Shown here: one piece after another, positions 1-47,491 of the stretch | How the letters are laid out: the number at the start of each line of letters is the position of its first letter | Position numbering within the stretch: position 1 is the first letter of the stretch | Source of the DNA: Paracoccaceae bacterium | GTDB taxonomy: Bacteria; Pseudomonadota; Alphaproteobacteria; Rhodobacterales; Rhodobacteraceae | Assembly (NCBI GenBank): GCA_007692585.1 | Contig: REBU01000051.1 | Coordinates: 1-54,558 of the forward strand | Direction: 5' to 3' | DNA: 54,558 nt | Program-made: the position numbers and the translations under genes | The notes under the pieces: model-generated | Database searches by the model: none | What the model was told of the DNA's origin: nothing | What the model saw: only the letters and a program-made list of their open reading frames with translations

Positions 1-761
<761 letters not shown>

Positions 762-3479: not shown

Positions 3480-3486
3480 CAGCAAA

Positions 3487-3563
3487 GCCCCCCGCGCAGA
3501 CGGCGAGCAGACCGGCGCAGCCGGTCTGCGGGGGTGGGCGGGCGGGCCGTCTGCGCGGGGGGC
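3487..3563. repeat. Palindrome with nested hairpin and G-quadruplex motif (element 1)
   Basis: An 18-bp perfect inverted repeat (3487-3504 with 3546-3563) starts one base beyond the GTA tail-tip stop codon. Its interior holds a second perfect hairpin (10 bp, 3507-3516 with 3520-3529, loop GCA) and then GGGGGTGGGCGGGCGGG on the plus strand (3530-3546), a four-tract G-quadruplex motif. Read on the minus strand it would fold in the message between the GTA tip gene and the small downstream gene. It may act as a terminator or processing stem although only TTT follows it. It shares its architecture, not its stem sequence, with elements at 29097 and 46105. Confidence 0.85.
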
Positions 3564-3564
3564 G

Positions 3565-6500
3565 TCATGCGCTGACCTCCAGGGTCGCGAAGGGGCCGGG
3601 GCCGGACAGATCCGAGATCTGCGCAACCTCGATCATGAAATTCGCCCCTACTCCATCTGCCGCGCGCATTGCCGCTGTATAAACCCACTGTGCAGCGTCC
3701 AGCTGCACCTCACGCAGCACCAGCCCACCACTGCGCACCCGCAGAACATATTGCTCGACCGCCTCGGACAGCGGCACATCAGCGACCCCCCAGCCATCCC
3801 CGCCGAACCGCGTGCGGCGTATCCAGCGCAGCGCCAGATTACCGGCCTCGTCGAATTCACCACGCAGATGCGCGGGCCGATAGGGTCGCAGCCCGATTCC
3901 GTCAAATCTGGCGTCAATATCGACCTGCGCAGGATCGCCCAGCGGACGGCTGGCTGGTCCCACACGGTAACTGCGCGCCACCCCCAGCGCACTCAGTGGC
4001 ACTGCCAGCGTCGCGACTGCGGGATCGAGCAGCACGACAACAGCGCCGGGCGGCCATGTTGCAGGCATGATCCCGTCGGTGCCGTATTGCCCGCGCAACC
4101 GCTGGCTGAGCTCATATACCCCCGGCTCGATCAGTTGCGCCTCGGCGAATTGAAACAGCTCCCAGTCTTCGCCCTGCCCGATGGCCATCAGATTTGCACC
4201 CCCCAACACACGGTCCGGTGCCACTGTATCGAGCCTGCCCGACACCATCCGTACCCGGAGCGCTGCGCCACGGTCCCAGATGCCGGACTGGGCTGCCTCA
4301 AGCGGGCTTTCCGTCACCCCCAGCACGGCCGGGCGCTCCAGCAAGGCGTCCAGTTCGAACTGCCCCGGCGCGCTCTGGTGATGCACCGTCACAAGCCCTG
4401 GCCAGGCCCGCGCACTTGCCGCGATGCGCGGATGATGCGCAACTTCTTCGCCAGTGATCATCGGCAAGTCCAGAAACACAGGCCGCACCGGCGCAGGCGT
4501 CTGGAAGTTCAGCAGCGCCGTGCCCGCGCGCTCCGTTTCGCCCCAATCGTAGACGATATCCTCGACGCGCGTCGCCTCGAACGCGCGGCCACCCGCCAGC
4601 GTGGCGCGGTCGATGCGCCAGAGCCCCGACCCTTCTCCAAGATCGAGCGCCACCACATCCCCCGCGCCGATATCGCGCGAAGGCGGCAGCCGGAAGCGCA
4701 GCGTGTCGCGCGCCACCCGCGCCTGCGCCAGCCAGCGCTCGGCGATCAGCACGGCCTCGCCTTCGGAAAACACCAGCGGCAGCTCCGAACCGGAAGCCCG
4801 CTCTGCCGAAGCATCGGGAAAACTCGCCTCCGCCACGCGTAGATCGAAATCCGCACCTTCCTCGATATAGCCCAGCCGCACACGGCCCGCGCCTTCTGCC
4901 TCTGGCGCGCGGATCAGCGTTACGTCGCCCCCGTCGCTGCGGCCCAGATCATCGCACCCAAGTGCGGCCACCGGACGGCCATTGCGCATCTGGAAGATCA
5001 GCCGCCCCTCGCGCTCGATCGCTTCCACGCCATAAGCCAGCATCAGCGATTGCAGCATCGCGCGCGGCGCCTCGGTCGAGGCTATGGCAAAGCCGCGCAC
5101 CACCCCATAGACACGGCTGACATCGACATCATGCACCCCCGCCCGCGCGCAGATCGCCGCGATCAGCGCATCGAGCGGCTGGCTGGTCGACCGGCCCGTG
5201 ATCCAATGCCCGCGCAACCAGTTCGCGCCGTCATCCCAGAGCGCCCGATTGCCCGGAAACCAGGGGTAAGGCCGCGCATCCCAGGCCCAGGCATGGGCGC
5301 GGGACATATCGACCATCGGGCCCTCATAAAGCTCCGAGATCGGGTTATGCGCAGGGTCCGACCAATACTCATTGACTGCGCGGTAATACTGCATCTGGAT
5401 CGCGTCATCGCGCCAGCCACGCGAAAAGTAAGGCACAAAGCTTTCCGAGGATTTCGGATCAAGAAAGACATTGGGCTGGTTGGTGCCGCGGTCAATCGCG
5501 GCGCAACCGTATTCCGTGAACCAGAAGGGCTTGGAGCGCGGCTCCCAATCGGTCGGCTGCTCGGAACGCACACCGCCTATGCGGTCGTGGTGGTCATTTT
5601 CCCACCAGCTGCGCAGATCCTTGGTGCGGAAAATCCAATCCTCGCCCCATTCGCTGTCATCGATGATCGGCGTCCGGCGCTGCTCTTCGCGGTCGAGCGC
5701 TGTGGCGTAGAACCAGTCATGACCCTCGCCGCCCACGACGTTGGATTTCAGGTACTCGAGGTTGTAGATATCGCCCCAATGCGCGTCGAGATGATCCGTG
5801 CCGTCGCGCCAGTCGGATAGCGGCATGTAATTGTCGATGCCGATGAAGTCGATATTGGCATCCGCCCAGAGCGGATCGAGATGGAAAAACCGATCGCCCT
5901 GCGCCGTGATATAGCCGAAATATTCCGACCAGTCGGCAGCATAGGTGATCTTCGTATCCGGCCCCAGAATCGCGCGGACCTCAGCGGCCAGCGCGATCAG
6001 CGCGGCCACAGCCGGGAAGCTGTTGCCTGCACCCCGGATCTGCGTCAGCCCGCGCATTTCCGAGCCGATACAAAACGCATCGACCCCACCCGCCGCCGCA
6101 CAGAGCGCGGCCTGATGCAGGATGAAACGGCGGTAGCGCCATTCCTGCGGGCCGGAATAGCTGACGCTGCCGGGCGAGATGCTGAAATGGCTGGCCTGCG
6201 CCGTGCCGAAGAACGCCGCCACTTCGGCTGCGGCCTGCGCGGTCGAATCCGTACTGCCTGCCACACCGGGCGCTTTTTCAGTGGTGATGCGCCCGCGCCA
6301 TGGCAGGGCGGGCTGGCTCTCGGCGTCGGACCACGGGTCGGGCAGGTCATTGCCGGGCAGGATTTCCATCAGGATGAACGGGTAATAGACGACGGCCTGC
6401 CCGCGTGCCTTGAGCGCGGCAATTGCGTCGAGCACGGAGGCATCAGAGGGCGTGCCGCCATAGGTGATCCCGTCACCGAGCCGCGCGATCTCGGGGGTGT

Positions 6501-7518
6501 CAATTGCAGCGCGACCGGCAACGGCCCACGGCTGCTTGGGCACGAAGCGGTCTGCAAATTCGACCTTGGGCTCGATCTCGCACTGCCCCGCCCGCAGGTC
6601 GGAGCCGAACCATGAGACGATCAACAGGCTCGAGGCGCAGCGCGGCAATTCCCGCACCAACGCGTCCAGAGCCGCGTCGAGATCGCTCTGCCCGGTCGGG
6701 GAATTGAGGTTCATCGGCACGTCCGCCGCGTTGGTCAGGCGCCCCCGCAATGTGGGTTCAGATCCGCTGCCGCCATCCGTCGCGGCATTGTAGCTGCGTC
6801 CATAGAGCGGCGTTGTCGCCAGCGCGAAATCGCCCGAACCGGGCATCAGCGCGACGGCCTGCACGTGATCGGCCAGACCCTGCGGTGCGTCTCCCTCGAC
6901 TGCGCGCAGCACCTCGAAGCTCAGCTGCGGCACGCGGTTGCCGAATTCGCCCAAGGGCAGATCCTCGATCACCACATAGGCAATCCCGCGATAGGCGGGC
7001 GCGTGGCCTGCGCCCTCGATGGCCTCGATCAGCGGATCGGGAAGCTGGTCTTCATCGCCATGATAGATGCGCAGATTCAGATCCGCAGGTGTCAGTTCCT
7101 GACCATCCGCCCAGATCCGGCCCACACCCAGAATCGGACCTTCGCACAGCGCCACCGCCAGCGAAATCGAATAGCTGAATTCGCGCACCTTGGGGCGCTG
7201 GACGATCTTGCCGCCGCCGCCCGAGGTGCGCACCGTTTCAAGGAAATCCGACGCCCAGATGACCTGCCCGCCGACGCGCATGCGCCCCCAGACCAGCGCT
7301 ACGGCGGCGCCTTCGGTCGCGCCCGTCATGCGCAGCCGCTCGATCCGGCCCGTCTCGATCACCTGCGATCCGCCGCCCATCAGCCGCTGGTCGATCAGCC
7401 GCCCCACGGTCGCACCGACCGCGCGCCCGATGACCAGCCCCGACAGGCCCAGCACCGCGCCCCCGAAGCTGGAGCCGACCGCCGCGCCCACTGCAGAAAG
7501 AACCAAGGTTGCCATCAT
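3565..7518 (-). CDS. g15: GTA host-specificity / tail tip protein (RcGTA g15-like)
   Basis: At 1317 residues this is the largest GTA structural protein, about the size of R. capsulatus gp15, which forms the tail tip that contacts the recipient cell. The N-terminus is glycine-rich and hydrophobic (MMATLVLSAVGAAVGSSFGG). A central region around residues 420-740 (e.g. FSISPGSVSYSGP, FCIGSEMRGL, DNYMPLSDWRDG, FWFTEYGC) matches the glycoside-hydrolase/TIM-barrel-like domain of GTA tip proteins. The C-terminal part is phage tail-like. The start is two bases past the peptidase stop with GGAG upstream. No frameshift is visible. It closes the structural operon. Confidence 0.93.
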   Translation of the reverse strand: MMATLVLSAVGAAVGSSFGGAVLGLSGLVIGRAVGATVGRLIDQRLMGGGSQVIETGRIERLRMTGATEGAAVALVWGRMRVGGQVIWASDFLETVRTSGGGGKIVQRPKVREFSYSISLAVALCEGPILGVGRIWADGQELTPADLNLRIYHGDEDQLPDPLIEAIEGAGHAPAYRGIAYVVIEDLPLGEFGNRVPQLSFEVLRAVEGDAPQGLADHVQAVALMPGSGDFALATTPLYGRSYNAATDGGSGSEPTLRGRLTNAADVPMNLNSPTGQSDLDAALDALVRELPRCASSLLIVSWFGSDLRAGQCEIEPKVEFADRFVPKQPWAVAGRAAIDTPEIARLGDGITYGGTPSDASVLDAIAALKARGQAVVYYPFILMEILPGNDLPDPWSDAESQPALPWRGRITTEKAPGVAGSTDSTAQAAAEVAAFFGTAQASHFSISPGSVSYSGPQEWRYRRFILHQAALCAAAGGVDAFCIGSEMRGLTQIRGAGNSFPAVAALIALAAEVRAILGPDTKITYAADWSEYFGYITAQGDRFFHLDPLWADANIDFIGIDNYMPLSDWRDGTDHLDAHWGDIYNLEYLKSNVVGGEGHDWFYATALDREEQRRTPIIDDSEWGEDWIFRTKDLRSWWENDHHDRIGGVRSEQPTDWEPRSKPFWFTEYGCAAIDRGTNQPNVFLDPKSSESFVPYFSRGWRDDAIQMQYYRAVNEYWSDPAHNPISELYEGPMVDMSRAHAWAWDARPYPWFPGNRALWDDGANWLRGHWITGRSTSQPLDALIAAICARAGVHDVDVSRVYGVVRGFAIASTEAPRAMLQSLMLAYGVEAIEREGRLIFQMRNGRPVAALGCDDLGRSDGGDVTLIRAPEAEGAGRVRLGYIEEGADFDLRVAEASFPDASAERASGSELPLVFSEGEAVLIAERWLAQARVARDTLRFRLPPSRDIGAGDVVALDLGEGSGLWRIDRATLAGGRAFEATRVEDIVYDWGETERAGTALLNFQTPAPVRPVFLDLPMITGEEVAHHPRIAASARAWPGLVTVHHQSAPGQFELDALLERPAVLGVTESPLEAAQSGIWDRGAALRVRMVSGRLDTVAPDRVLGGANLMAIGQGEDWELFQFAEAQLIEPGVYELSQRLRGQYGTDGIMPATWPPGAVVVLLDPAVATLAVPLSALGVARSYRVGPASRPLGDPAQVDIDARFDGIGLRPYRPAHLRGEFDEAGNLALRWIRRTRFGGDGWGVADVPLSEAVEQYVLRVRSGGLVLREVQLDAAQWVYTAAMRAADGVGANFMIEVAQISDLSGPGPFATLEVSA

Positions 7519-7519
7519 G

Positions 7520-7951
7520 TCACTCCATTTCAGTCATAAGCGGCGGGAAGTCGAAGCGCGCCACGATGCGGCGCGCCCAGGGGGCCGAGAGCGGGGCCTC
7601 CACCACGCCAGCGTGCGGGCAGGTATGGATAAACCCGCGCCCGGCGCGGGTCTGGATGCCAAGATGTTTTGCCAAGGCGCGCGGTTGCAGCCGGAACAGC
7701 AGAAGCTGCCCGTCTGCAGGTGCCGTCGCGGGCAGGAAGTGGCGCGCAAGGCCTTGCCAGAGCCGTTCTTCAGGGCCCGTTTCGGACCAATGCGGCGCGT
7801 AATCGGGCAGGGCCTGCATGTCGCGCCCGTAGCGCGCGCGCCAGATGCCGAAGATCAGCCCCAGACAATCCGCCCCTGCCCCGCGCCGACTTGCGCGGTG
7901 GTGATAGGGCGTGCCGATCCAGCCCCGCGCGAGCGCCACCACATCGCCCAT
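7520..7951 (-). CDS. g14: GTA NlpC/P60 family peptidase (g14-like)
   Basis: This 143-residue cell-wall peptidase is expected at the tail tip, where it would help local peptidoglycan opening during DNA delivery. The catalytic Cys lies in GADCLGLIFGIWR (Cys29) after the family's WIGTPYHHR segment, and a His follows in GRGFIHT. The length fits single-domain NlpC/P60 GTA proteins. Its start shares one base with the stop of the DUF2163 gene and it ends just before the tip gene, so it is translationally coupled on both sides. Confidence 0.93.
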   Translation of the reverse strand: MGDVVALARGWIGTPYHHRASRRGAGADCLGLIFGIWRARYGRDMQALPDYAPHWSETGPEERLWQGLARHFLPATAPADGQLLLFRLQPRALAKHLGIQTRAGRGFIHTCPHAGVVEAPLSAPWARRIVARFDFPPLMTEME

Positions 7952-8826
7952 CAGCGCCGCTTTCCGCCTTGATTGGGTGCGCCCGCCTTAGGGTAGCTCG
8001 TCAGCCAATCCTCGCCCGGAATATGCGGGAAACCACGGAAATTCAGGAGGTTGTTGAACTTCACGCGGCAAGTGCCCGCCTGCTTGTCGCATCCCACCTC
8101 AAGGCGCAGCAGATCGCCGGGGGCGAGGGGCGCGCGCAGGCTGTCCCAGAGCGTGATCTCACGCACCTCGCCCTGCATCCGGTCGTCGCGGATATGGCCG
8201 ATCAACCCCTCGGCCGCGCCCGAGAGCACAGTGACGCGCCCGCCTGCAAACCAGCCAGGCGCGACAGTTTCGATCGGCGCGAAACGCAGCTGCGCGGGCT
8301 CGGCGCGCAACTCGGCCAGTGGCACCTCCGCCCGATAGCCGGGGGCATCAAGATCGAAGCGGCAGGCGCTGTCACCCAGCGTGGCCGCGCAGGCCGCATG
8401 ATAGATGCGCCCGCCGGACTGGCCCAGCGGCTCCGACAATCCACGCAATTCCGTGCGAAACGCCCCGCCTGCGCGGGTGATCTCGCCCAGGGTGCCGCGA
8501 AAGATCACGCGCCGCTGATCGGGCGCGGCCCAGTTGACCTCCCAGATCGCCAAATCGGCGCCGTCATAGCGGCCCGCCATGATATCAGCCTCACGCAGGC
8601 CCGCATCACGCAGCGCGCCAACGGCCTCGGAGTTGTCCACCGCCAGCCCTGTCACCTGCTCCAGCGCGCGGGCGGTCAGTCCGGCCTCGGCGCGAAAGGT
8701 GATGCCGTCGAAATTCAGGTCGCGGTCATGGTCGGTGAAGCCCAGCGTCAGCCCGTCACGCCGCATCAGCGCCCAGGCGCGCGCGATCGTGGTGGCCCCG
8801 GTGGAAAGATGTTGCGCAAGGCTCAC
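7951..8826 (-). CDS. g13: GTA distal tail / hub protein, DUF2163 (g13-like)
   Basis: This 291-residue protein resembles the DUF2163/BR0599-type hub component of the RcGTA tail. The N-terminal part (ARAWALMRRDGLTLGFTDHDRD) is the usual DUF2163 opening. The C-terminal part has conserved cysteines (CAATLGDSACRFDLDAPGYR; VGCDKQAGTCRVKFNNLLNFRGFPHIPGED), which in RcGTA gp13 are reported to bind an iron-sulphur cluster; four cysteines suitable for this are visible here, but the cluster is inferred. It overlaps the g12 stop by ATGA and touches the g14 start. Confidence 0.92.
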   Translation of the reverse strand: MSLAQHLSTGATTIARAWALMRRDGLTLGFTDHDRDLNFDGITFRAEAGLTARALEQVTGLAVDNSEAVGALRDAGLREADIMAGRYDGADLAIWEVNWAAPDQRRVIFRGTLGEITRAGGAFRTELRGLSEPLGQSGGRIYHAACAATLGDSACRFDLDAPGYRAEVPLAELRAEPAQLRFAPIETVAPGWFAGGRVTVLSGAAEGLIGHIRDDRMQGEVREITLWDSLRAPLAPGDLLRLEVGCDKQAGTCRVKFNNLLNFRGFPHIPGEDWLTSYPKAGAPNQGGKRR

Positions 8827-9455
8827 AGCCGCACCTCCACGACCGGAACCTTGGGCAACTGCCCGGCGCGGAAACTCGCAACCGAGAGCTGGATGAGATC
8901 TGTATCGAACCGCACGGGCACATCGAATTCATACCCGGCCTGCACTTCCGCGCCGACATCGGGCGCGCGCTCGAAGGTGATGACGCCGGTCGTGACATCC
9001 ACCTCGAAGTCAATACCCGCGATCTTTTCGTCCGCACGCAACCCCGCGACGACTGTGCCCGCGACAGGCTTGCGGATGTCGCGGAAATAGGTTTGCGCGC
9101 CAGAGGCATAGGACTTGCGCAGCTGAAAGCTGCGCGTCTGCCCGTCGCCAATGGCAATGACCTGATCGAAGGGTGTCACCTGCTGCGAGGCGGGGGCCGA
9201 ACGGTAGTCGCCCCAGTCCTTCCAGCGAAATGCGTGCAGCATACCCTGACGGGCCTCGAAAAAGGCGATCATCACTTCCAGATCATCCAGCGCGCGCAGG
9301 CCAGTGCCCGCATCATAGCGCCGGCGCGATGCGGACCAGGGTGTGTTGCGCTCTTCAAAGCCATTGGCCAGCTCGACGATCTCGGTGCGCCGTTCCGGCC
9401 CGCCCAGCGCGCCGAAGCTCAGATTGGCAGGAAAGCGGATTTCATGAAATGCCAT
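8823..9455 (-). CDS. g12: GTA distal tail protein, DUF2460 (g12-like)
   Basis: This 210-residue protein of the DUF2460 family joins the tail tube to the hub in GTA particles. It starts MAFHEIRFPANLSFGALGGPE, has the family's RRYDAGTGLRALDDLEVMIAFFEAR and FRWKDWGDYRS segments, and ends with PKVPVVEVRL. The length equals the family norm. It follows the tape-measure gene by 15 bp and overlaps g13 by four bases. Confidence 0.93.
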   Translation of the reverse strand: MAFHEIRFPANLSFGALGGPERRTEIVELANGFEERNTPWSASRRRYDAGTGLRALDDLEVMIAFFEARQGMLHAFRWKDWGDYRSAPASQQVTPFDQVIAIGDGQTRSFQLRKSYASGAQTYFRDIRKPVAGTVVAGLRADEKIAGIDFEVDVTTGVITFERAPDVGAEVQAGYEFDVPVRFDTDLIQLSVASFRAGQLPKVPVVEVRL

Positions 9456-9470
9456 TGGCGTATGTCCCCC

Positions 9471-10124
9471 TCAGCGGTTGCGATTGCCCTGCGCCAGAAG
9501 GCGGCTCATCTGGGCCGCGATCTGGGTTTGCGAACGCTCGAACCCAGCGACATCGGGCGTCGAGATGTTGAAGGTCACATTGACCGGCTGCCCGCCGCCG
9601 CCCGCACGCACGCCAAGGCTGCCATCGGGGCCGCGCGACAGAGGCAGAATCGCCTCTGGACCGGCTTCCCCCATCAGTCCGGTGCCGCCGCGCATCGGGA
9701 AGGCCGTGGCCTGACTGACCACACCGCCCTTGGCGAAGGGCATCACCCGCCCCGCGCCAAAAGCCCCGCCCTGCGCGAAGGGCATGACCGATCCCATGAC
9801 GCCCGCAAGCCCCTGCGCCAGCGCTCCGCCAAAGGCGTTCTGCACCGGGCGCATCGCGGTGTTGTAGACGCTGTTCACCATCGTCTGCGCGATACCGCGC
9901 AGCGCGTCCTGCAGGCGCATGCCGTCAAACACCACCCCGTCAAAGGCCCGGCGCAACCCGGTCGAGAAATTGCGCGACAGCCCATCCACCTCGCGCCCCG
10001 TGAAGATCAGGCTGCGACCGAGGCCCGACAACTCATTATCGAACTCCGCGACCAGACCCGTGGTCTGGCCCAGCCGCGCTTCAAGCGTGGCAATCTGCGC
10101 TTCAAGATCGCTCAGCGTGGTCAT
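9471..10124 (-). CDS. g11: GTA tape measure protein (g11-like)
   Basis: This protein sets tail length and may help DNA exit. At 217 residues it is short, as in RcGTA, consistent with the very short GTA tail. It opens with a coiled coil (LSDLEAQIATLEARL), continues through FDGMRLQDALRGIAQTMVNSVYNTA, then a Gly/Ala/Phe-rich stretch with the repeated phrase VMPFAQGG / VMPFAKGG, and the phage tail motif GGTGLMGEAGPEAILPLSRG. The start lies inside the end of g10.1 (23-bp overlap), so the two are coupled. Confidence 0.93.
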   Translation of the reverse strand: MTTLSDLEAQIATLEARLGQTTGLVAEFDNELSGLGRSLIFTGREVDGLSRNFSTGLRRAFDGVVFDGMRLQDALRGIAQTMVNSVYNTAMRPVQNAFGGALAQGLAGVMGSVMPFAQGGAFGAGRVMPFAKGGVVSQATAFPMRGGTGLMGEAGPEAILPLSRGPDGSLGVRAGGGGQPVNVTFNISTPDVAGFERSQTQIAAQMSRLLAQGNRNR

Positions 10125-10326
10125 TGTCCTTGCCTTTCTGTCTGTCAGGATAGCGCGCGGCCAGGTCTTCCAGCCGGGCGCGGGTCAAGGGACCGGGCGC
10201 GGCATCGAGCCCCGCCATGATCATCAGCTCCGCAGGCGTCAGCGCCCAGAACTCACGCGGAGCCAAGCGCAGCTCGCGCAGCCCAAGCCGCATCAGCGCG
10301 GGCCAGTCCAGCGCCCGCGCACTCAT
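10102..10326 (-). CDS. g10.1: GTA phage tail assembly chaperone (g10.1-like)
   Basis: This 74-residue protein of the small GTA tail-chaperone family precedes the tape measure gene, as in RcGTA where g10 and g10.1 take the place of the phage lambda G/GT chaperones. Visible features are LGLRELRLAPREFWALTPAEL, the typical phrase of the family, and a basic/acidic tail. It overlaps g10 by ATGA and the tape-measure start by 23 bp. No slippery frameshift site is needed because each protein has its own start. Confidence 0.88.
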   Translation of the reverse strand: MSARALDWPALMRLGLRELRLAPREFWALTPAELMIMAGLDAAPGPLTRARLEDLAARYPDRQKGKDNDHAERS

Positions 10327-10649
10327 GCCGGGGGCGTGAAGGCGCGCGCCAGCAATTCGGCCGCGATACGGGCGGCACCATGCAGACCGCCCTCGATCTC
10401 GGCCTGCATCAGATCGGAGGCCTGGCCTTGCCAGCCGCCGCCGCGCAGCCCCGCCACGATCAGCCCCAGCACATCGCGCGACGACACCCGGCCCTGCTCG
10501 AATCGCTCGACCAGTGCGAGGATCGTATCCTCGCCCATCGCGGTCTCCATCTCGGCCAGCGCACCCAGCGTCAGGCGCAACCGCTGCGGTTGGCCGTCAA
10601 TGATCAGCGTGACTTCGCCTGCATAGGGATTGGTCATGGCCGCGCTCAC
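10323..10649 (-). CDS. g10: GTA gp10 family protein (tail tube assembly chaperone)
   Basis: This 108-residue protein resembles the GTA-gp10 family. The start region has a beta-hairpin signature (YAGEVTLIIDGQPQRLRLTLGAL) followed by helices (AEMETAMGED; VLGLIVAGLRGGGW). It is placed between the major tail protein and g10.1, the position of the G-type chaperone of siphoviruses, which holds the tape measure before assembly. It overlaps both neighbours by four bases, so expression is tied to the tail tube gene. Confidence 0.88.
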   Translation of the reverse strand: MSAAMTNPYAGEVTLIIDGQPQRLRLTLGALAEMETAMGEDTILALVERFEQGRVSSRDVLGLIVAGLRGGGWQGQASDLMQAEIEGGLHGAARIAAELLARAFTPPA

Positions 10650-11059
10650 AGCTCCACGAAGGTCACAAGACCCGCCGAGGACAACGACAGCTCGAATGTC
10701 GCCTCGCCATTATGGCTGCCCGCGTAATCGAGGCCGGTGATCATGAACCGGCCCTGCACAATCCCGAAGTCGGGGATGATGATCTGGAAATCCGGGGTTT
10801 CGCCATTGAAGAAGATCGCCCGCGCACGCTCATCGGTCGCCGCGTCGCGAAACACGCCCGAGCCCGAGATTGCCGCCGATTTCACCCCTGCGCCGCCGAG
10901 CAATTCGCGCCAGCCCATCTGCGACGACATCGAGGTGACATCGACCGTCTCGGCATTGAAACTCAGCCGTGTCGCGCGCAGACCCGCGAGCGTTTCAAAC
11001 TGCCCGTCGCCAGTCATATCGACCTTGACCAGCAGATCCTTGCCATTCTGTGCACCCAT
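10646..11059 (-). CDS. g9: GTA major tail (tube) protein (g9-like)
   Basis: This 137-residue protein matches the phage TP901-1-type major tail subunit: it opens MGAQNGKDLLVKVDM and contains TSMSSQMGWRELLGGAGVKS and GRFMITGLDYAGSHNGEATFE. It polymerises into the tail tube. An unusually good ribosome site, AAGGAGGTG, precedes the ATG, in keeping with the many copies needed. The gene is separated from g8 by 24 bp, one of few gaps in the operon. Confidence 0.93.
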   Translation of the reverse strand: MGAQNGKDLLVKVDMTGDGQFETLAGLRATRLSFNAETVDVTSMSSQMGWRELLGGAGVKSAAISGSGVFRDAATDERARAIFFNGETPDFQIIIPDFGIVQGRFMITGLDYAGSHNGEATFELSLSSAGLVTFVEL

Positions 11060-11083
11060 GGTGGCACCTCCTTGAACGTGAAA

Positions 11084-11497
11084 TCAGATGTCGTCCTCGA
11101 CCCGCGCGCGAAAGCGCAGGTCAATGCGGCGGGTCTGGTCGCCTTCGACCTTGCGCGCCTCGGCACGGTCGAACCACATCGCAACCAACCGCCCGCGCGC
11201 GAGCACCAGCGCAGGCGCGTCCAGCACTTCGCTGATCCGCGCGGCGATCTGCTTGGCCGACAGAAACCCGGTCGCATTGGTGACAACCGACACGACCAGC
11301 CGGTGTTCGGCCCCGTGCCCGGTCTTGTCGGAGCGGTCGAACGCTTCCTCCGGGCCGATCAGCACATAGGTCGCGGGCGGTGTGGCAGGCGGGATTGCAT
11401 CGTAGATCGCATCGCCCAGCAGCGCTTCCAACGCGACATCAGCGGCCAGATGCGCGTAAATCGCGGTCTGCAGCATGGCGGCCAGTTGATAGCTCAT
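11084..11497 (-). CDS. g8: GTA tail terminator, DUF3168 (g8-like)
   Basis: This 137-residue protein of the DUF3168 family caps the head-proximal end of the tail tube. It has the family pattern AAMLQTAIYAHLAADVALEALLGDAIYDAIPPA, an internal YVLIGPEEAFD and a C-terminal RRIDLRFRARVED. It overlaps g7 by ATGA and lies before the tail tube gene, the canonical position for a siphovirus tail terminator. Confidence 0.92.
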   Translation of the reverse strand: MSYQLAAMLQTAIYAHLAADVALEALLGDAIYDAIPPATPPATYVLIGPEEAFDRSDKTGHGAEHRLVVSVVTNATGFLSAKQIAARISEVLDAPALVLARGRLVAMWFDRAEARKVEGDQTRRIDLRFRARVEDDI

Positions 11498-11835
11498 GCG
11501 GGCAACTCCTCTTGCGCGGTGCAGACCAGATAGCGGCCCTGCACATCGGCTTCGGCCACGGCAAGAATGCGGAAAATCCGAGCGCCTTCACGAAAGCGCT
11601 GCTCGGGGCGCGGGCGCTGGTCCGAGCCATGCGGCGCCCCGCGCACCAGTATGCGCAAGGTGACCTCGCCCGCAGGCCCAAGCGTGGCGAAGCGCTCGCG
11701 CCCGGCACCTGCGCGGATCTCGCCCCAGAGCGTGCCGAGCACTTGCCAGCCTTTGGTGAACCCGCCCGCACCATCCTTGATGATCACCGGGGTTTCCAGC
11801 ACCAGCGCACGGGTCAGATGCGGCGCGCGGCTCAT
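11494..11835 (-). CDS. g7: GTA head-tail closure / stopper protein (g7-like)
   Basis: This 113-residue protein of the phage head-tail joining family forms the ring that closes the capsid exit channel. Typical phrases are LVLETPVIIKDGAGGFTKGWQVLGTLWGEI, ILVRGAPHGSDQRPRPEQRF and FRILAVAEADVQGRYLVC. It is coupled to g6 and g8 by four-base ATGA overlaps on both ends, the arrangement expected for connector subunits needed in equal number. Confidence 0.92.
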   Translation of the reverse strand: MSRAPHLTRALVLETPVIIKDGAGGFTKGWQVLGTLWGEIRAGAGRERFATLGPAGEVTLRILVRGAPHGSDQRPRPEQRFREGARIFRILAVAEADVQGRYLVCTAQEELPA

Positions 11836-12410
11836 GCCCGCCCCCCGATGCGAATGTCGCGCCAGCGCTCCAGCAGCGCACGGATGCCAAAGGCCATATC
11901 AGCATCGCCGCCAGTGTCGCGGGCCTCATAATATTGCGCGGCCAGAAGCAGCACCGCCTGACGCAGATCTGATGGGATCGCAGCCCAATCGGTGGCAAAA
12001 CCCGCGGTGAAGGCAATCACCACCTGCCCGCGCGTGGGGATCGTGGGCAACACGCCGATGACCCTGGGCCGCGCGCTATCCGCATCGAGCCGCAGCCGCC
12101 CGGCGGCCACCGGGCTTTGCCCGCCTGCGGCATTGATCAGCGTCACAGCGCCGAGCGCTACGACAGGCGCGACGGGCAAGCGCTGCGCCTCGGTCCCGCG
12201 CCATGCACTCAGCCGCAGCTCGAATGTGCGCTGGAACAACGCGCGCGACACCCGCGCCTCGACCGAGGCGATGGCCGCGCGCAGGAACTGCTCAAGCGTG
12301 GCGTCCTGCGTGGTCTCATCGACAAAGCCGCTGCCCAGACGCAGATGCGCGCGAAACTCGGCCAGCGGCAGGGCGGCTGTAGGGATAGGGCTGGTCTCTC
12401 TCAGATCCAT
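11832..12410 (-). CDS. g6: GTA head-tail connector / adaptor protein (g6-like)
   Basis: This 192-residue protein is the HK97 gp6-type adaptor that docks on the portal. It has PLAEFRAHLRLGSGFVDETTQDATLEQFLRAAIASVEARVSR, the classic phage gp6 opening, and ends with ARDTGGDADMAFGIRALLERWRDIRIG. I start at 12410 (MDLRETSPIP) because an earlier in-frame ATG would include the hairpin upstream. It begins about 165 bp after the capsid gene, behind a terminator-like structure. Confidence 0.92.
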   Translation of the reverse strand: MDLRETSPIPTAALPLAEFRAHLRLGSGFVDETTQDATLEQFLRAAIASVEARVSRALFQRTFELRLSAWRGTEAQRLPVAPVVALGAVTLINAAGGQSPVAAGRLRLDADSARPRVIGVLPTIPTRGQVVIAFTAGFATDWAAIPSDLRQAVLLLAAQYYEARDTGGDADMAFGIRALLERWRDIRIGGRA

Positions 12411-12441
12411 GAAGGGCCTCGCGCAGCTAGAATTCTTCGGG

Positions 12442-12470
12442 AAAAACAGGGTGCCCCGCGCCCGGCCCTG
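12442..12470 (-). terminator. Terminator-like hairpin between capsid (g5) and adaptor (g6) genes
   Basis: On the minus strand CAGGG and CCCTG (12470-12466 with 12451-12447) close a GC-rich loop and are followed at once by five T (12446-12442). A longer-range pairing of GGGTGCCC (about 12530-12523) with GGGCACCC (about 12456-12449) could compete with it. The intergenic stretch 12411-12575 holds no gene. Its position directly after the capsid gene suggests partial attenuation, so that capsid is made in excess over connector and tail genes. The stem is short, so strength is uncertain. Confidence 0.5.
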
Positions 12471-12575
12471 CAGCAATCAGGGGGAACGTCAGGACGATGC
12501 AGGCCAGGTCAATGAGGACAGGGCACCCGTCCGGCCCCGTGACGCTCAGACGCGCCGCGGGGACGGGATTTCAGA

Positions 12576-13781
12576 TCAGTTCAGGCCGAATTTCAGCAGT
12601 TTGATTGCCTTGAAATCCGACACATCACCGCCGACGCGCTTGGTGGCATAGAACAGAACATGGGGCTTGGCGCTGAACGGATCGCGCAACACGCGCATAT
12701 CGGGCCGCTCGGCGATGGTGTAGCCGGACGCGAAATCGCCAAAGGCAATCGCATAGCTGTCTGCCGCGATATCGGGCATATCCTCGGCCACGAGCACCGG
12801 ATAGCCCATCAGACGCGCAGGCTCGCCTGCGGCCAGACCATCCGACCACAGGAAGCGGCCATCGGCATCTTTCATCTTGCGCACGGCACCTGCAGTTTTC
12901 GAATTCATCACGAAAACGCCATTGGCGCGGTAGGTCGCGTCCAGCGCATAGACCAGATCGACAATCGCATCGGCCGCGTTCACGGCCGCGAAATCGCCAT
13001 TCGCGCCGGTCGCGATATAGCCCAGGCTGCCCCATTCCCAAGCCGCATCTTCGACCGCTGCGTGATCAAGGAACCCGCGCGGCTTGTCCACACCGTCGCC
13101 ATGGATGAAGGCGGAAGCTTCTGCACGGGCGAATTTCGACGCGATCCGGCCCGCAAGCCAGCCCTCGATGTCAAACGCACTGTCATCAAGCAAGCGCTGG
13201 CTGGCCTTGGGCATGGCCGACAGCTCATGCAGGCGGATCGGGATGCGGTCGATCTTGGGCGTGTCGGATTCCGCAATCGTGCCGGTTTCGCTGGCCCAGC
13301 CGGTCGACACATCCGTATGATCGACCAGCACATCGAAAGAGGTCGATTCGACCGTCACCACAGAGGCAATCGCGCGGATCGACGCGGTCGAGGTCAGCGC
13401 CGAGCGGATCACGCTCGCGGTTTCAGGATCGACCAGATAGCCGCCATCAGCTGCAATCTGTGTGTTCAGACCCTTGGCTTCCAGCTCCAGGCCGCGCATC
13501 GCCGCATCGTCACCGCGCCGCAGATAGGCGTCAAACGCCTTGTGATGAAGGGTTTCACCTGCATCCGCGCTCATCAGCACGGGGCGGGCGGGGGATAGGG
13601 CAGTCTTGCGATCCAGCATGGTCAGTCGCTCTTCCTGTTGTGAAAGTTTCCGGGTGATATCGGCCTGAAAGGCATCGAATTCCTGCGCGAAGCCCTGCAT
13701 CGCGGTCTTCAGCTCCAGGCCCTCGGCCACGGGTGCCCCCGCGCCTTTCGGGCCCGCGTGCGCGCGCACGGGGTCAGTCAT
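12576..13781 (-). CDS. g5: GTA major capsid protein, HK97 fold (g5-like)
   Basis: This 401-residue protein matches the HK97-type phage major capsid family. The first ~90 residues form a charged scaffold-like coiled coil (AMQGFAQEFDAFQADITRKL, SQQEERLTMLDRK) that is normally cut off by the neighbouring protease. The body carries DGGYLVDPETASVIRSAL, GWASETGTIAESDTPKIDRI, ASKFARAEASAFIHGDG and PRGFLDHA. A good AGGAG site precedes the start. It is expressed between the protease and the connector genes, the usual order. Confidence 0.95.
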   Translation of the reverse strand: MTDPVRAHAGPKGAGAPVAEGLELKTAMQGFAQEFDAFQADITRKLSQQEERLTMLDRKTALSPARPVLMSADAGETLHHKAFDAYLRRGDDAAMRGLELEAKGLNTQIAADGGYLVDPETASVIRSALTSTASIRAIASVVTVESTSFDVLVDHTDVSTGWASETGTIAESDTPKIDRIPIRLHELSAMPKASQRLLDDSAFDIEGWLAGRIASKFARAEASAFIHGDGVDKPRGFLDHAAVEDAAWEWGSLGYIATGANGDFAAVNAADAIVDLVYALDATYRANGVFVMNSKTAGAVRKMKDADGRFLWSDGLAAGEPARLMGYPVLVAEDMPDIAADSYAIAFGDFASGYTIAERPDMRVLRDPFSAKPHVLFYATKRVGGDVSDFKAIKLLKFGLN

Positions 13782-28110: not shown

Positions 28111-28604
28111 CCCCCTCCCGTCTGATCGCGACCTTCTTCGGCGCAGGGCTGTTGCGGCCTGCACCCGGCACATGGGGCTCACTCGCGGCCCTGCCCGCCG
28201 CCTGGGGGCTGCACATGATCGGCGGCTTCTGGCTTCTGGCCCTCGCCACGGCGCTGGTGTTCCTGCTGGGCTGGTGGGCAACTGTGCAGGAAACCCGCGG
28301 CCTTGCAGACCCTGACCCGTCCGAGATCGTCATCGACGAGGTTGCGGGCATGTGGCTCGCCCTCTGGCCAGTGTCACTGGGCGCGATGCTGCAGGGCGTG
28401 CCGGTGCTGGCGCTCTGGCCGGGCTGGGTGGTGGCGTTTCTGGCGTTTCGGGCCTTCGATATCTGGAAACCAGGTCCAGTGGGGCTTGCCGACCGGATGC
28501 ATACACCGTTGGGCGTGATGCTCGACGATATCATCGCAGGCGCGCTGGCCGCAATGTTGGTCGCAGTCTTCGCCGTCGTGGCGCATGGGATGATGGGGGT
28601 ATGA
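28107..28604 (+). CDS. pgpA: Phosphatidylglycerophosphatase A
   Basis: This inner-membrane phosphatase makes phosphatidylglycerol from its phosphate precursor. The 165-residue protein has the PgpA opening [21 protein letters not shown], then [12 protein letters not shown] and [11 protein letters not shown]...[17 protein letters not shown], with three or four hydrophobic helices. It overlaps ispDF by ATGA and the CinA-family gene by ATGA, so the three form a tight operon. Confidence 0.95.
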
Positions 28605-29074
28605 GCGCTGCCGAAGCTCTCGCGGCGGCGCGTGCGCAGGGGCTGCAGATCGTGGCGGCCGAAAGCTGCACCGGCGGGATGATCATGGCCGCTCTGACCG
28701 ATATCGCAGGCGCGTCCGATGTTGTGGACCGGGGGTTTGTCACCTATTCCAACGCGGCGAAGACGGAGCTGCTGGGCGTACGGACTGAAACGCTGGCCGC
28801 GCATGGGGCCGTGTCCGAACAGGTGGCGCGAGAGATGGCCGCAGGCGCGCTGGCTCGCGCACAGGCCGGGATCGCCATCGCGGTCACAGGCATCGCAGGC
28901 CCCGGCGGGTCCGAGCACAAGCCCGAAGGCCGCGTCTGTTTCGGCCTTGCGACAGAGGATGATATCCGCAGCGAAACCGTCGAATTCGGCGCGATTGGCC
29001 GCGTGCAGGTGCGCAAAGCGACTGTGCAACACGCGCTCGGGATGATCATTGCAGCCTTGCGCGCAGCAGGCTGA
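28601..29074 (+). CDS. CinA C-terminal family protein (nicotinamide-nucleotide amidase)
   Basis: This 157-residue protein equals the stand-alone CinA_C domain (PncC), which deamidates NMN to recycle the NAD pool. Diagnostic phrases are IVAAESCTGGMIMAALTDIAG, VTYSNAAKTELLGV, ALARAQAGIAIAVTGIAGPGG and KPEGRVCFGLA. The MoaB-like half of full-length CinA is absent, which is normal for PncC. It ends 22 bp before the palindromic element at 29097. Confidence 0.92.
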   Translation: MSAAEALAAARAQGLQIVAAESCTGGMIMAALTDIAGASDVVDRGFVTYSNAAKTELLGVRTETLAAHGAVSEQVAREMAAGALARAQAGIAIAVTGIAGPGGSEHKPEGRVCFGLATEDDIRSETVEFGAIGRVQVRKATVQHALGMIIAALRAAG

Positions 29075-29096
29075 ACCCACCCAACCGACCAGAGCT

Positions 29097-29172
29097 GCCA
29101 GCCCTTTCGCCCTTCGGATGGCGCGCAAGGGTGGGTGGGTGGGCGCGACATCCGAAGGGCGAAAGGGCTGGC
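29097..29172. repeat. Palindrome with G-quadruplex loop (element 2)
   Basis: A perfect 24-bp inverted repeat (29097-29120 with 29149-29172) encloses a 28-base loop. The loop contains GGGTGGGTGGGTGGG (29129-29143) on the plus strand, the ideal form of a parallel quadruplex with single-base loops, framed by GCGC on both sides. It fills the 102-bp gap between the convergent pncC and COQ10-like genes and ends five bases from the latter's stop codon. No T run follows on either side. See elements at 3487 and 46105. Confidence 0.93.
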
Positions 29173-29176
29173 CGCG

Positions 29177-29623
29177 TCAGCCGTATAGCTCTCTGGCACG
29201 CGTCTCAAAAGCGCCCACCACCCGGCGCATGGCCTGATCGAAGACAACCCCGATCAACCTTTGCAGAACAGGGTTGCGGAATTCGAAATCGACCGAGAAA
29301 TCCACCACACAGCCCCCGTCTTCGGCAGGCTTCATATGCCAATGCGAGATCATGTATTTGAACGGCCCGTCCAGATAGGCCGTGTCGATACGCCGTGCTT
29401 CGGGATAAAGCTCGACGCGACTCCCAAACCTCTCGCGAAACACCTTGAACGAAATCACCAGATCCGCCTCGATCTGCTCGCCGCCCTCGATGGGCCTGCG
29501 CGAGCGGATGCGCGCGGCCGCTGTCCAGGGTAGAAATTCGGGATAACGCGCCACATCAGCGACCAGATCGAAGATCTGTTCCGCACTATAGGGCATATGC
29601 CGATGTTCTGTGTGGCTGGGCAT
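29177..29623 (-). CDS. COQ10/RatA-type START domain protein
   Basis: This 148-residue protein of the polyketide cyclase/COQ10 family is expected to bind ubiquinone and support respiratory or Q biosynthetic steps. It has [22 protein letters not shown], the family's N-terminal helix, [14 protein letters not shown] and [33 protein letters not shown]. In Rhodobacteraceae the gene is usually near lipA or elsewhere; here it is solitary and convergent with pncC. Confidence 0.92.
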
Positions 29624-45476: not shown

Positions 45477-46016
45477 ATAGCCCGCAGACCGCATAATGCC
45501 CCGCCGCAACGTGATACCGGACCCCGTGTCAACGACCGTATCCGCGCGCAAGAAATTCGCCTTATCGGGGCAGAGGGAGAGAATCTGGGGGTCGTTCCCC
45601 CATCAAAAGCGATGGCACTGGCCGAAGAGGCCGGGCTGGATCTGGTCGAAATCTCGCCCAACGCGACCCCGCCGGTCTGCAAGATCATGGATTTCGGCAA
45701 GTATAAATACGAAGTTCAGAAGCGGGAAGCCGAGGCCCGTAAAAATCAGAAGATCATCGAGATCAAGGAAGTCAAATTCCGCCCCAACACGGATACGCAT
45801 GATTACGACGTGAAAATGCGCAACGTGATGCGGTTTCTGGAAGCCGGTGACAAGGTCAAGGTGACGCTGCGCTTTCGGGGCCGTGAAATGGCGCACCAGG
45901 ATATCGGGGCGCAGCTTCTGCACCGTGTGGCCGCCGATATCGACGAAATCGGCAAGGTCGAAAACATGCCCAAAATGGAAGGGCGGCAAATGATCATGAT
46001 GATCGCACCGCGCTGA
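45477..46016 (+). CDS. infC: Translation initiation factor IF-3 (AUA start)
   Basis: IF-3 keeps the 30S subunit free and checks initiator codons. Family similarity begins at [15 protein letters not shown] and runs through [21 protein letters not shown] to [18 protein letters not shown] and [16 protein letters not shown]-like [18 protein letters not shown], ending [14 protein letters not shown]. Before the first ATG at 45612 there is no ATG, GTG or TTG in frame. ATA at 45477 follows AAGGAG (45464-45469) with ideal spacing, giving 179 residues, the usual length. E. coli infC also starts with a rare codon (AUU) for autocontrol by IF-3. No rpmI-rplT follows. Confidence 0.93.
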
Positions 46017-46038: not shown

Positions 46039-46064
46039 ACCCGCCGCATTCCGGCGGGTTTTTT
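46039..46064 (+). terminator. Intrinsic terminator of infC
   Basis: ACCCGCCG (46039-46046) pairs with CGGCGGGT (46052-46059) across five bases and runs into a T6 tract (46059-46064), 22 bp past the infC stop. This is the clearest intrinsic terminator in the window. Confidence 0.92.
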
Positions 46065-46104: not shown

Positions 46105-46175
46105 GGCCTGAGGCCGCCCGCCCGGAGCGTTGGGGTGGGTGGGTGGGAAACGGTCCGGGCGGGCGGCCTCAGGCC
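46105..46175. repeat. Palindrome with G-quadruplex loop (element 3)
   Basis: A perfect 22-bp inverted repeat (46105-46126 with 46154-46175) encloses a 27-base loop that carries GGGGTGGGTGGGTGGG (46132-46147) on the plus strand. Its right arm overlaps the last two codons and the stop codon (46169-46171) of the convergent aminotransferase gene. infC already has its own terminator upstream, so this is not needed to end infC. See elements at 3487 and 29097. Confidence 0.93.
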
Positions 46176-47491
46176 AAAGCTGCCTCGACCGCGTCCGACA
46201 GCCGGCCTGTGATTTCCGACACATCGTCCCTGGTCACGATGAAAGGCGGCGCAAGCAGCACATGATCGCCCCGCACCCCGTCAATCGTGCCGCCCATCGG
46301 ATAGACCATCAGCCCGCGCGCCATCGCTTCCGCCTTGATCTTCGCATGCAGCTTGCGCGCGGGATCAAAGGGCGCTTTCGTGTCGCGATCGGCGACCAGC
46401 TCAATGGCCTGAAACAGCCCGCGCCCACGAATATCGCCAATATGTGGGTGCTGACCGAAAGCCGCCTGCAGCTCATCGCGCAGATATGCGCCCATCACGT
46501 GCACATTCTCCAGCAGATTGTCGCGCGCGATGACCTGCTGCACTGCCAGCCCTGCCGCCGCCGCCATGGGATGACCCATATAGGTGTGGCCATGCTGGAA
46601 AAACCCTGTGCCGCGCGCGAAAGCGTCGTAAATCTTTTTGCTTAACAGTGTCGCGCCCACTGGCTGGAACCCGCCGCCAAGTCCCTTGGCAATGGTCAGC
46701 AGATCCGGCGCAATTCCGTCATGTTCGCAAGCATAGCGGGTGCCGGTTCGGCCCATCCCGCACATCACCTCATCGAGGATCAGGAGCACCCCGTAGCGAT
46801 CACAAATCGCGCGGATCTGTTTGAAATAATCACCCACTGCGGGCACCGCCCCGGCAGTCGCACCCACCACTGGCTCAGCGATGAAGGCCGCGACCGTCTC
46901 GGGGCCAAGCTCCAGGATCTTGGCCTCCAGTTCACCCGCCGCCCGCGTCGCATAATCCGCGTCCGATTCGCCCTCATGCTGCTCACGATAGGCAAAACAG
47001 GGCGCAATATGGTGCGCCTGCATCAGCAGCGGCTTGAACTGCGCGCGGCGCCACTCATTGCCGCCCGCGGCCAGCGCACCCAGCGTATTGCCGTGATAGC
47101 TCTGCCGCCGCGCGATGATATGGCGGCGCTCGGGCTGACCCGTCTCGGTGAAATATTGCCGCGCCATCTTCAGCGCGGCCTCCACGGCCTCTGACCCGCC
47201 CGAGACCAGATAAACATGCTCCAGCCCGGCAGGTGCACCTGCGATCAACGTATCGGCCAGTTTCTCGGCCACCTCGGACGTGAAAAAACCGGTATGCGCA
47301 TAGGCGAGGTGGTCGAGCTGGGCATGAAGTGCTGCGATCACATCAGGATGCGCATGCCCGAGGCAGGACACCGCCGCCCCGCCCGACGCATCGATATAAG
47401 ACCGCCCGTCGCGGTCTGTAATCTCGATCCTTTTCGCACCCACCGCGACGCGGGGCGGCGTGTGGATGGAGCGGTGCAGAAGATGGGTCAT
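46169..47491 (-). CDS. Class III (PLP) aminotransferase
   Basis: This 440-residue aminotransferase belongs to the class III omega-type. PLP-binding Lys269 lies in LLTIAKGLGGGFQPVGA, and Asp240 in VLLILDEVMCGMGRTG contacts the cofactor ring. LVSGGSEAVEAALKMARQYF and YHGNTLGALAAGG complete the fold. Substrate is unknown; gamma-aminobutyrate-, beta-alanine- and taurine-pyruvate-type enzymes are all possible. Its stop is inside the right arm of the palindrome at 46105-46175. Confidence 0.92.
   Translation of the reverse strand: MTHLLHRSIHTPPRVAVGAKRIEITDRDGRSYIDASGGAAVSCLGHAHPDVIAALHAQLDHLAYAHTGFFTSEVAEKLADTLIAGAPAGLEHVYLVSGGSEAVEAALKMARQYFTETGQPERRHIIARRQSYHGNTLGALAAGGNEWRRAQFKPLLMQAHHIAPCFAYREQHEGESDADYATRAAGELEAKILELGPETVAAFIAEPVVGATAGAVPAVGDYFKQIRAICDRYGVLLILDEVMCGMGRTGTRYACEHDGIAPDLLTIAKGLGGGFQPVGATLLSKKIYDAFARGTGFFQHGHTYMGHPMAAAAGLAVQQVIARDNLLENVHVMGAYLRDELQAAFGQHPHIGDIRGRGLFQAIELVADRDTKAPFDPARKLHAKIKAEAMARGLMVYPMGGTIDGVRGDHVLLAPPFIVTRDDVSEITGRLSDAVEAALA

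What the first reader, a model, noticed from the sequence alone, without database searches (positions are those of the whole stretch)
29097..29172. Long perfect palindrome with an ideal G-quadruplex in its loop, at a convergent gene junction
Seen: 24-bp perfect arms, a 28-base loop and GGGTGGGTGGGTGGG in the loop on the plus strand, filling the gap between pncC and a COQ10-like gene. Two more elements with the same plan but different stem sequence lie at 3487 and 46105. A stem plus quadruplex would be a strong block to polymerase and could act as a two-way terminator, a processing signal or a protein-binding DNA structure. REP-type repeats conserve stem sequence; here the loop is conserved and the stems are not, which I have not seen described. 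G4 motifs of this (GGGT)n type have been noted in the related Paracoccus denitrificans, but not, to my knowledge, in this hairpin form.
Basis: partly seen in the sequence, partly recalled or inferred. Interest (0 to 1): 0.85.

Follow-up and report, generated by a model that had tools for sequence, protein, structure and literature searches.

The report
G-quadruplex-capped DNA hairpins at gene ends
Some soda-lake bacteria and their relatives carry DNA hairpins tipped with a four-stranded G-quadruplex motif; the stems are rewritten between species yet stay paired, and the structure lies on one particular strand at the ends of genes, which suggests a selected DNA structure that stops transcription there.

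Summary
All three window elements are G4-capped hairpins; the G4 motif occurs 3 times against 0.03 expected. The genome has 21 (GGGH)3GGG places, 17 in strong hairpins. Genus: Roseinatronobacter/Natronohydrobacter; other Rhodobacteraceae genera have them too.

New: (1) Stems covary: at the GTA megatron-DUF7742 junction 18 of 24 genus loci keep outer stem, inner hairpin and G tracts with exactly 41 nt between outer arms; 21 of 28 stem positions show double compensatory changes. (2) Stem mismatches are those stable on the G strand: G.T 62 against A.C 5, G.G 27:1, G.A 27:4. (3) The G4 lies on the template strand of a gene whose stop codon is about 10 bp away. (4) In the own genome the G4 was on the inferred leading-strand template in 20 of 20 scored hits.

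A two-way terminator is not supported; the element is polar. Best reading: a selected, strand-specific DNA fold that halts RNA polymerase at ends of co-directional transcription units. The fold is well supported; termination is inference. The site in the finding is a species-specific gain (absent in 19 relatives).

The parts
29094..29175 (+). Element 1 (the finding): arms 29094-29126 and 29143-29175, G4 tract at 29129-29143; G strand is +
29177..29623 (-). RatA/COQ10-like (Polyketide_cyc) gene whose stop codon is next to element 1; the G strand is its template strand
   Evidence: gap 4 bp
28601..29074 (+). pncC/CinA-type gene converging on element 1 (22 bp away)
   Evidence: gap
3487..3563 (+). 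Element 2: outer stem 3487-3504/3546-3563, inner hairpin 3507-3516/3520-3529 with GCA triloop 3517-3519, G tracts 3530-3546; G strand is +
3565..7518 (-). gene transfer agent 'megatron' baseplate protein (gp15) gene whose stop codon is next to element 2
   Evidence: NF048004, 1764.6 bits
3195..3485 (-). DUF7742 gene starting on the other side of element 2 (tandem)
   Evidence: PF24891
46105..46175 (+). Element 3: arms 46105-46131/46149-46175, G4 at 46133-46147; G strand is +
46169..47491 (-). class III aminotransferase gene whose stop codon overlaps the right arm of element 3
46040..46064 (+). ordinary intrinsic-terminator-like hairpin + T tract of the opposite gene infC (45612-46016), read by eye
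   Evidence: sequence; infC

Best explanation
The element is a selected, strand-specific DNA structure: one strand (the G strand) folds into a stem capped by a G-quadruplex, in one class with an extra GNA-triloop hairpin. It sits at the 3' end of a transcription unit that runs with replication, on the strand that is the template both for RNA polymerase and for the leading-strand DNA polymerase. SHOWN (by comparison): the stem pairs covary, the G tracts are kept, mismatches are tolerated as if only the G strand had to fold, the element abuts the stop codon of a gene for which the G strand is template, and it is replication-polar. INFERRED: transcription-driven or gyrase-driven negative supercoiling extrudes it; RNA polymerase, which tracks the template strand, is stopped by it, so that transcription does not run into the next unit; the same fold is purged from the lagging-strand template, where exposed single strands would fold at each replication, so that only co-directional genes can carry it. 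I put about 0.85 on the strand-specific selected DNA fold and 0.4 on the whole statement including transcription stop.
For: Covariation at one orthologous junction in 18 species: 474 of 504 stem cells Watson-Crick against a shuffle mean of 318 and maximum of 343 in 1000; 21 of 28 pair positions with a double change. At least 15 orthologous sites carry an element in two or three species, several with unrelated stems. Mismatches on the G strand: genus 2777 pairs G.T 62/A.C 5, G.G 27/C.C 1, G.A 27/C.T 4; other genera 651 pairs 13/0, 11/1, 8/1. Gene polarity: 80 of 92 classifiable sites; non-REP-like set tandem 36 against 3, median 10 bp to the stop codon, 36 of 53 within 20 bp; three other genera 24 of 29. 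Replication polarity: 20 of 20 scored hits in the own genome, 39 of 41 over four genus genomes by the GGGNAGGG proxy; G130 all 47 hits uniform per contig. Inner loops: 14 of 18 triloops are GNA (gp15 set 11 of 11). Precedent for a template-strand DNA hairpin extruded in vivo by gyrase: phage N4 early promoters, where non-conserved stem bases do not matter as long as the hairpin is kept (passages of PMC4496689).
Against: No transcription data at all. PMC7023247 (passages): in E. coli (G3T)8 was 354- and 270-fold more mutable with G on the NON-template strand, supercoiling alone was said not to form G4, and leading/lagging differences were minimal for (G3T)4 and (G3T)8; so the template orientation may be the one in which G4 folds least, and gene polarity could be avoidance rather than function. 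Outside the genus only 5 of 52 gp15 junctions show an ordinary terminator in the same place, so the element does not clearly replace one. At the pncC site 12 of 19 relatives manage with overlapping stop codons and no element. Replication polarity is not universal: G097 is mixed, some contigs of G015, G033 and G011 are mixed; GC skew disagrees in 3 of 19 own-genome hits and 2 of 6 in G031. L134/L144 have the same genes with the G4 on opposite strands. Three of 39 non-REP-like tandem sites have the other polarity.
Confidence: 0.4

Rival explanations
1. Mutational origin: a G4 on the leading-strand template stalls the polymerase, and template switching (quasipalindrome correction) keeps copying one arm into the other. 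The palindromes are made and kept perfect by replication, with little or no function.
For: Explains perfect arms with fast-changing letters, the need for a G4, and leading-template polarity. Template switching can create and maintain hairpins with multibase compensatory changes (abstract of PMC8794818).
Against: Does not by itself explain contact with the stop codon of the co-template gene, the constant 41-nt plan in 18 species, persistence at the same genes across species, or the one-strand mismatch bias.
Confidence: 0.17
2. Topological element: a gene-end site that absorbs or signals supercoils (cruciform/G4 as sink, or binding site for gyrase, a nucleoid protein or SSB), as proposed for REP/BIME in enteric bacteria.
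For: Gene-end location, palindromic, many copies in some genomes, DNA-level strand signature.
Against: No conserved protein-binding letters in the stems; no binding data. REP roles are taken from abstracts/listings and recall.
Confidence: 0.15
3. mRNA 3' hairpin: the C-strand RNA of the abutting gene forms the stem and works as terminator hairpin or exonuclease block.
For: Position and polarity fit a 3' UTR hairpin.
Against: On the C strand the tolerated mismatches would be A.C, C.C and C.U while G.U is nearly absent (5 against 62), the reverse of an RNA under selection; T tract after the hairpin in 2 of 57; replication polarity would be unexplained.
Confidence: 0.12
4. G-strand RNA: an antisense or regulatory RNA carries the structure.
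For: G.T excess on the G strand suits RNA as well as DNA.
Against: G.U makes up only 62 of 2777 pairs and is not commoner than G.G plus G.A (54); GNA triloops outnumber tetraloops; RNA would not need replication polarity; no Rfam family reaches its threshold there. Promoters for such an RNA were not searched for.
Confidence: 0.06
5. Mobile repeat of REP/RAYT or MITE type.
For: Copy number varies from 0 to 158 in the genus; a REP-like subset with conserved stem exists, and G015 has its own stem family; the pncC site is a gain.
Against: Y1 transposase PF01797 over cut-off in 2 of 37 genus genomes and not found in the own genome; non-REP-like stems are not conserved; many sites are orthologous.
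Confidence: 0.06

Closest known systems
REP/BIME palindromes (RAYT-associated)
   Same: Extragenic, palindromic, near gene ends, many copies in some genomes
   Different: REPs share a consensus and have short stems (passages of PMC3733652 and PMC12306157: 5-13 bp stems, common consensus motif); here stems of 12-34 bp are free to change, the loop is a G4, and RAYT is absent from the own genome
Xanthomonas/Nostoc GGGAATC quadruplex repeats (PMC4692102, abstract and passages)
   Same: Abundant bacterial G4 sequences, often within 50 bp of a stop codon
   Different: Those are tandem repeats without hairpin, on the SENSE strand near stops and without leading/lagging preference; here template strand and replication-polar
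Phage N4 virion RNA polymerase promoters (PMC4496689, passages)
   Same: Template-strand DNA hairpin, small loop with a sheared G:A pair, stem letters partly free, extruded by supercoiling
   Different: A promoter recognised by a phage polymerase; no G4; here at gene ends
Intrinsic (Rho-independent) terminators
   Same: Hairpin just after a stop codon
   Different: No T tract in 55 of 57; selection signature on the template strand, not on the RNA strand
Paracoccus denitrificans nasT G-quadruplex (cited in passages of PMC5424462)
   Same: Rhodobacteraceae-related G4 DNA with a proposed role
   Different: Lies upstream of a gene; no hairpin described in the passages seen

Membership tests
REP/BIME | extragenic palindrome | tested here: met
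   2 of 114 sites called inside a gene
REP/BIME | shared consensus stem sequence | tested here: not met
   non-REP-like elements have unrelated stems; a REP-like subset meets it
REP/BIME | RAYT / Y1 transposase partner | tested here: not met
   PF01797 over cut-off in 2 of 37 genus genomes, none in G000
REP/BIME | gyrase or IHF binding | not testable with these tools
   no binding data
Intrinsic terminator | hairpin soon after stop codon | tested here: met
   36 of 53 within 20 bp
Intrinsic terminator | T tract after the hairpin on the coding strand | tested here: not met
   2 of 57 non-REP-like
Intrinsic terminator | transcript 3' ends at the site | not testable with these tools
   no RNA data
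Structured RNA family | match to a known Rfam family | tested here: not met
   only SSU rRNA in the window at gathering threshold
Structured RNA family | G.U tolerance on a transcribed strand | tested here: inconclusive
   G.T is tolerated only on the strand antisense to the neighbouring gene, at a low rate
G-quadruplex | four GGG tracts with 1-nt loops | tested here: met
G-quadruplex | folds in vitro or in vivo | not tested
   needs CD/NMR or in vivo probing
N4-type extruded DNA hairpin | small G-A closed loop on the template strand | tested here: met
   GNA in 14 of 18 triloops of inner hairpins outside the gp15 set; only one class of elements has an inner hairpin
N4-type extruded DNA hairpin | recognised by an N4-like vRNAP as promoter | not tested
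   not expected at gene ends

The most novel reading that the evidence does not exclude
A new class of cis-acting element whose functional form is folded DNA on one strand: stem letters are free, pairing and a G4 cap (with or without a GNA-triloop hairpin) are selected, and the fold acts as a template-strand transcription terminator that is permitted only on the leading-strand template. Bacterial transcription units would then be punctuated by DNA structure in the template, not only by RNA hairpins and Rho.
Probability: 0.35. Interest if true: 0.93.

Novelty: categorically new. Interest (0 to 1): 0.8.

Why it matters
Covariation is usually read as proof of a structured RNA. Here it marks a fold whose mismatch spectrum, triloops and replication polarity point to single-stranded DNA on the template strand. 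If so, selection maintains a non-B DNA structure in a bacterial chromosome, which is a long-disputed matter that becomes directly testable: dozens of natural sites, natural sister species with and without the element, and natural stem variants that keep only the structure.

Tried and rejected
Mobile REP/RAYT: rejected as the general explanation (orthologous sites). Conserved terminator of pncC/COQ10: rejected, since 0 of 19 relatives with both genes have it. Replacement of an ordinary terminator after gp15 outside the genus: not supported, 5 of 52. Known Rfam RNA: none at gathering threshold; the laxer E-value search was not run. Inverted copy of local flanking sequence as source of the arms: planned, but I had no closely related empty site with alignable intergenic DNA, so it stays untested. 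MAFFT alignment of the gp15 set shifted the inner stem between the tri- and tetraloop clades, so pairs were counted in a script on the ungapped plan and the counting tool was not used; one of the 19 sequences (L195) was dropped before the count as mis-registered. The first pattern (GGGNGGGNGGGNGGG) counted poly-G runs (G033: 550 hits against 40 with H), so later counts use H. An earlier count gave inner hairpins as 26 with 14 of 16 triloops GNA; a recount gives 28 with 14 of 18, used here. My notebook also gives G078 contig C3 as 18+/1-; the list gives 17+/1-.

Literature: searches (open-access library only) listed no description of G4-capped hairpins of this kind. Seen as passages only: PMC4496689, PMC7023247, PMC5424462, PMC13155455, PMC12563890, PMC4692102, PMC3733652, PMC12306157; abstract and outline of PMC8794818; everything else in listings. 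The KOPS motif GGGNAGGG, the stability order of DNA mismatches, d(GCGAAGC)-type GNA triloops and REP/gyrase roles are recalled.

Full report
OBSERVATION. The palindrome with GGGTGGGTGGGTGGG in its loop is at 29094-29175, and the two sister elements are at 3487-3563 and 46105-46175. They are the three best inverted repeats of the window, the motif occurs 3 times against 0.03 expected, and each strand folds as DNA far better than shuffles.

OWN GENOME. G000 (3.26 Mb, 116 contigs) has 23 hits of GGGNGGGNGGGNGGG: 22 places, one of them a poly-G run without hairpin (L006). Of the 21 (GGGH)3GGG places 17 sit in a hairpin of score 12 or more and 18 of score 10 or more; 400 random positions in the loci then in hand had median 6 and 99th percentile 10. 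Two of the 21 (L015, L021) look like the same element on two contig ends. Stems differ, while loops fall into groups: one with GCGC next to the G4, one with the loop AAGCGGGGTGGGCGGGCGGGAGCG in front of three unrelated stems (L008, L011, L020 nearly so), one with an inner hairpin (L001, L012), and a REP-like one with a kept AGCGCCC...GGGCGCT stem (L004, L010, L016, L017; probably L002).

SPREAD. In the genus 35 of 37 genomes have the motif, 0 to 158 hits. In a sample of 295 genomes of the family 137 have the motif. Of one locus from each of 30 of those genomes 12 have a hairpin of score 12 or more; many others are GGGCGGGCGGGCGGG without a hairpin. In three other genera rich in the motif (G130, G078, G097; 10 loci each) 29 of 30 have score 10 or more and 23 of 30 score 12 or more.

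GENE POLARITY. With the G4 strand as plus, the gene to the right is on the minus strand in 80 of 92 sites (114 examined; 20 unclear and 2 inside genes dropped, own gene finder). In G000 it is 16 of 16 (5 unclear). For hairpins of score 9 or more that are not REP-like: tandem 36 against 3, 1 divergent, 17 convergent of which 13 are closer to the minus-strand gene, 3 to the other and 1 tied (12 dropped); median gap to that gene's stop codon 10 bp, 36 of 53 at most 20 bp. The REP-like set is weaker: tandem 11 against 5, median 22 bp. In the three other genera 24 of 29 agree. The neighbouring genes of the own genome look like ordinary last genes of units (sequences; names recalled except those).

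ORTHOLOGOUS SITES. Comparing flanking proteins, at least 15 sites have an element next to the same gene in two or three species; in several (L007/L031/L051, L009/L069, L023/L129, L030/L058, L115/L132) the stems are unrelated, in others (L011/L037) they are related with compensatory changes. One pair (L134/L144) has the G4 on opposite strands. The pncC-COQ10 site of the finding is different: 0 of 19 relatives with both genes have it, and in 12 of these the stop codons overlap, so it is a gain in this species.

COVARIATION. After the GTA megatron gene, 24 genus loci could be read: 18 have the G4 motif on the template strand, none on the coding strand, and 6 lack it (L193, L197 and L202 keep the plan with broken G tracts; L195, L209 and L218 do not keep it); two of the 24 are cut by a contig end inside the element. 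18 loci (15 with the intact motif, plus L193, L197 and L202) have exactly 41 nt between the outer arms. Outside the genus 0 of 52 junctions have it. In the 18, 474 of 504 stem cells are Watson-Crick (shuffle mean 318, maximum 343), and 21 of 28 positions have a double change. Shuffles do not keep relatedness, but the double changes are many and the two stems change independently of the loop.

WHICH STRAND. Mismatches in stems of score 12 or more (161 of 236 places, both sets together): genus G.T 62, G.G 27, G.A 27 on the G strand against A.C 5, C.C 1, C.T 4; other genera 13, 11, 8 against 0, 1, 1. In the 114-site subset 11 of the 28 G/T cells with G in the left arm are at one shared position, so not all are independent, but the bias holds in other genera and in the gp15 set (15, 3, 6 against 2, 1, 1). 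Only G-strand stability explains this; mutation bias of this size in all three mismatch classes would be odd (inference). Inner hairpins outside the gp15 set: 28, with 18 triloops of which 14 are GNA, 5 tetraloops and 5 longer; in the gp15 set 11 GNA triloops and 7 tetraloops. GNA triloops and tolerance of G.G and G.A as much as G.T suit DNA better than RNA (recalled thermodynamics).

REPLICATION POLARITY. Using the majority of GGGNAGGG (KOPS, recalled) in the surrounding 20 kb or the window as a sign of the leading strand, the G4 is on the opposite strand in 20 of 20 scored hits in G000 (2 hits without majority dropped; the 20 include one overlapping pair and the probable duplicate, so 18 elements; some majorities are thin), 9 of 9 in G020, 4 of 6 in G021 and 6 of 6 in G031; by third-position GC skew 16 of 19, 7 of 7, 6 of 6 and 4 of 6. 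On single long contigs the strand switches once: G020 C1 plus at 22-275 kb, minus at 417-1954 kb; G021 C1 minus at 842 kb, plus at 2155-3430 kb. In G130 every contig is uniform (18-, 15-, 3+, 10+, 1+), in G078 nearly so (C1 8-/1+, C2 1-/4+, C3 17+/1-, C4 6+/1-), G097 is mixed. In G130 GC skew mostly and KOPS agree on the leading strand; in G078 skew is unclear and only KOPS speaks. So the G4 is on the leading-strand template.

HOW IT MAY WORK. A structure on the template strand blocks a polymerase that reads that strand; on the other strand it need not. That fits contact with the stop codon and the polarity. A fold on the lagging-strand template would form at each replication: PMC7023247 (passages) cites 20-1000-fold more deletion for hairpins there, though it found little leading/lagging difference for G4 repeats themselves and a 354- and 270-fold higher mutation rate with G on the non-template strand. 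The latter offers a plain rival: both polarities may be the orientations in which the G4 does least harm. But harm avoidance does not explain why the structure is kept with compensatory changes at the same genes, so I favour function, with a template-strand stop as the most likely one. Phage N4 shows that a template-strand DNA hairpin with free stem letters can be extruded by gyrase in vivo.

KNOWN KINDS. Not REP (no shared stem, no RAYT in the own genome), not an ordinary intrinsic terminator (no T tract in 55 of 57), no Rfam family at threshold, unlike the Xanthomonas G4 repeats (sense strand, no replication bias). I call it categorically new because no known kind that I could compare combines free, covarying stems, a G4 cap, a DNA-type one-strand signature and double polarity; if it proves a plain terminator, 'new variant of a known kind' would be the fairer label.

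Noticed in passing
window 3195-13781: A gene transfer agent tail cluster lies here (megatron/gp15 at 3565-7518 with NCBIfam NF048004 and Pfam GTA_TIM; DUF7742 at 3195-3485).
   Followed up: partly
window 1-761 (minus): The window starts inside a bacterial 16S rRNA gene (RF00177, cut at its 3' end).
   Followed up: no
L002, L015, L021 (contigs C10, C66, C107 of G000): G4 hairpins lie within 90 bp of contig ends, and L015/L021 look like one element shared by two contig ends; in G002 and G011 contigs end inside the gp15 element (L192, L208). The structure seems to break assemblies, so draft genomes may under-count it.
   Followed up: partly
G033, also G003, G005, G011, G025: Hundreds of overlapping hits of the N pattern shrink with H (G033 550 to 40), which points to long poly-G runs in these genomes; real or an assembly artefact is unknown.
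   Followed up: no
L085, L090 (pncC-COQ10 junction in G031 and G022); L089 (G035) beside the COQ10 gene: In these species the place holds another small palindrome, GGTGCGTGC...GCACGCACC or similar.
   Followed up: no
L141, L149, L151, L152, L155, L158 (G015): G015 (158 hits) has a family with a shared stem AAGCGCCCTCGG or similar around the G4, as if a REP-like subset had multiplied there.
   Followed up: no
L134 (G001) and L144 (G015): Same two genes in the same order with the G4 on opposite strands: the loop may have inverted between the arms.
   Followed up: no
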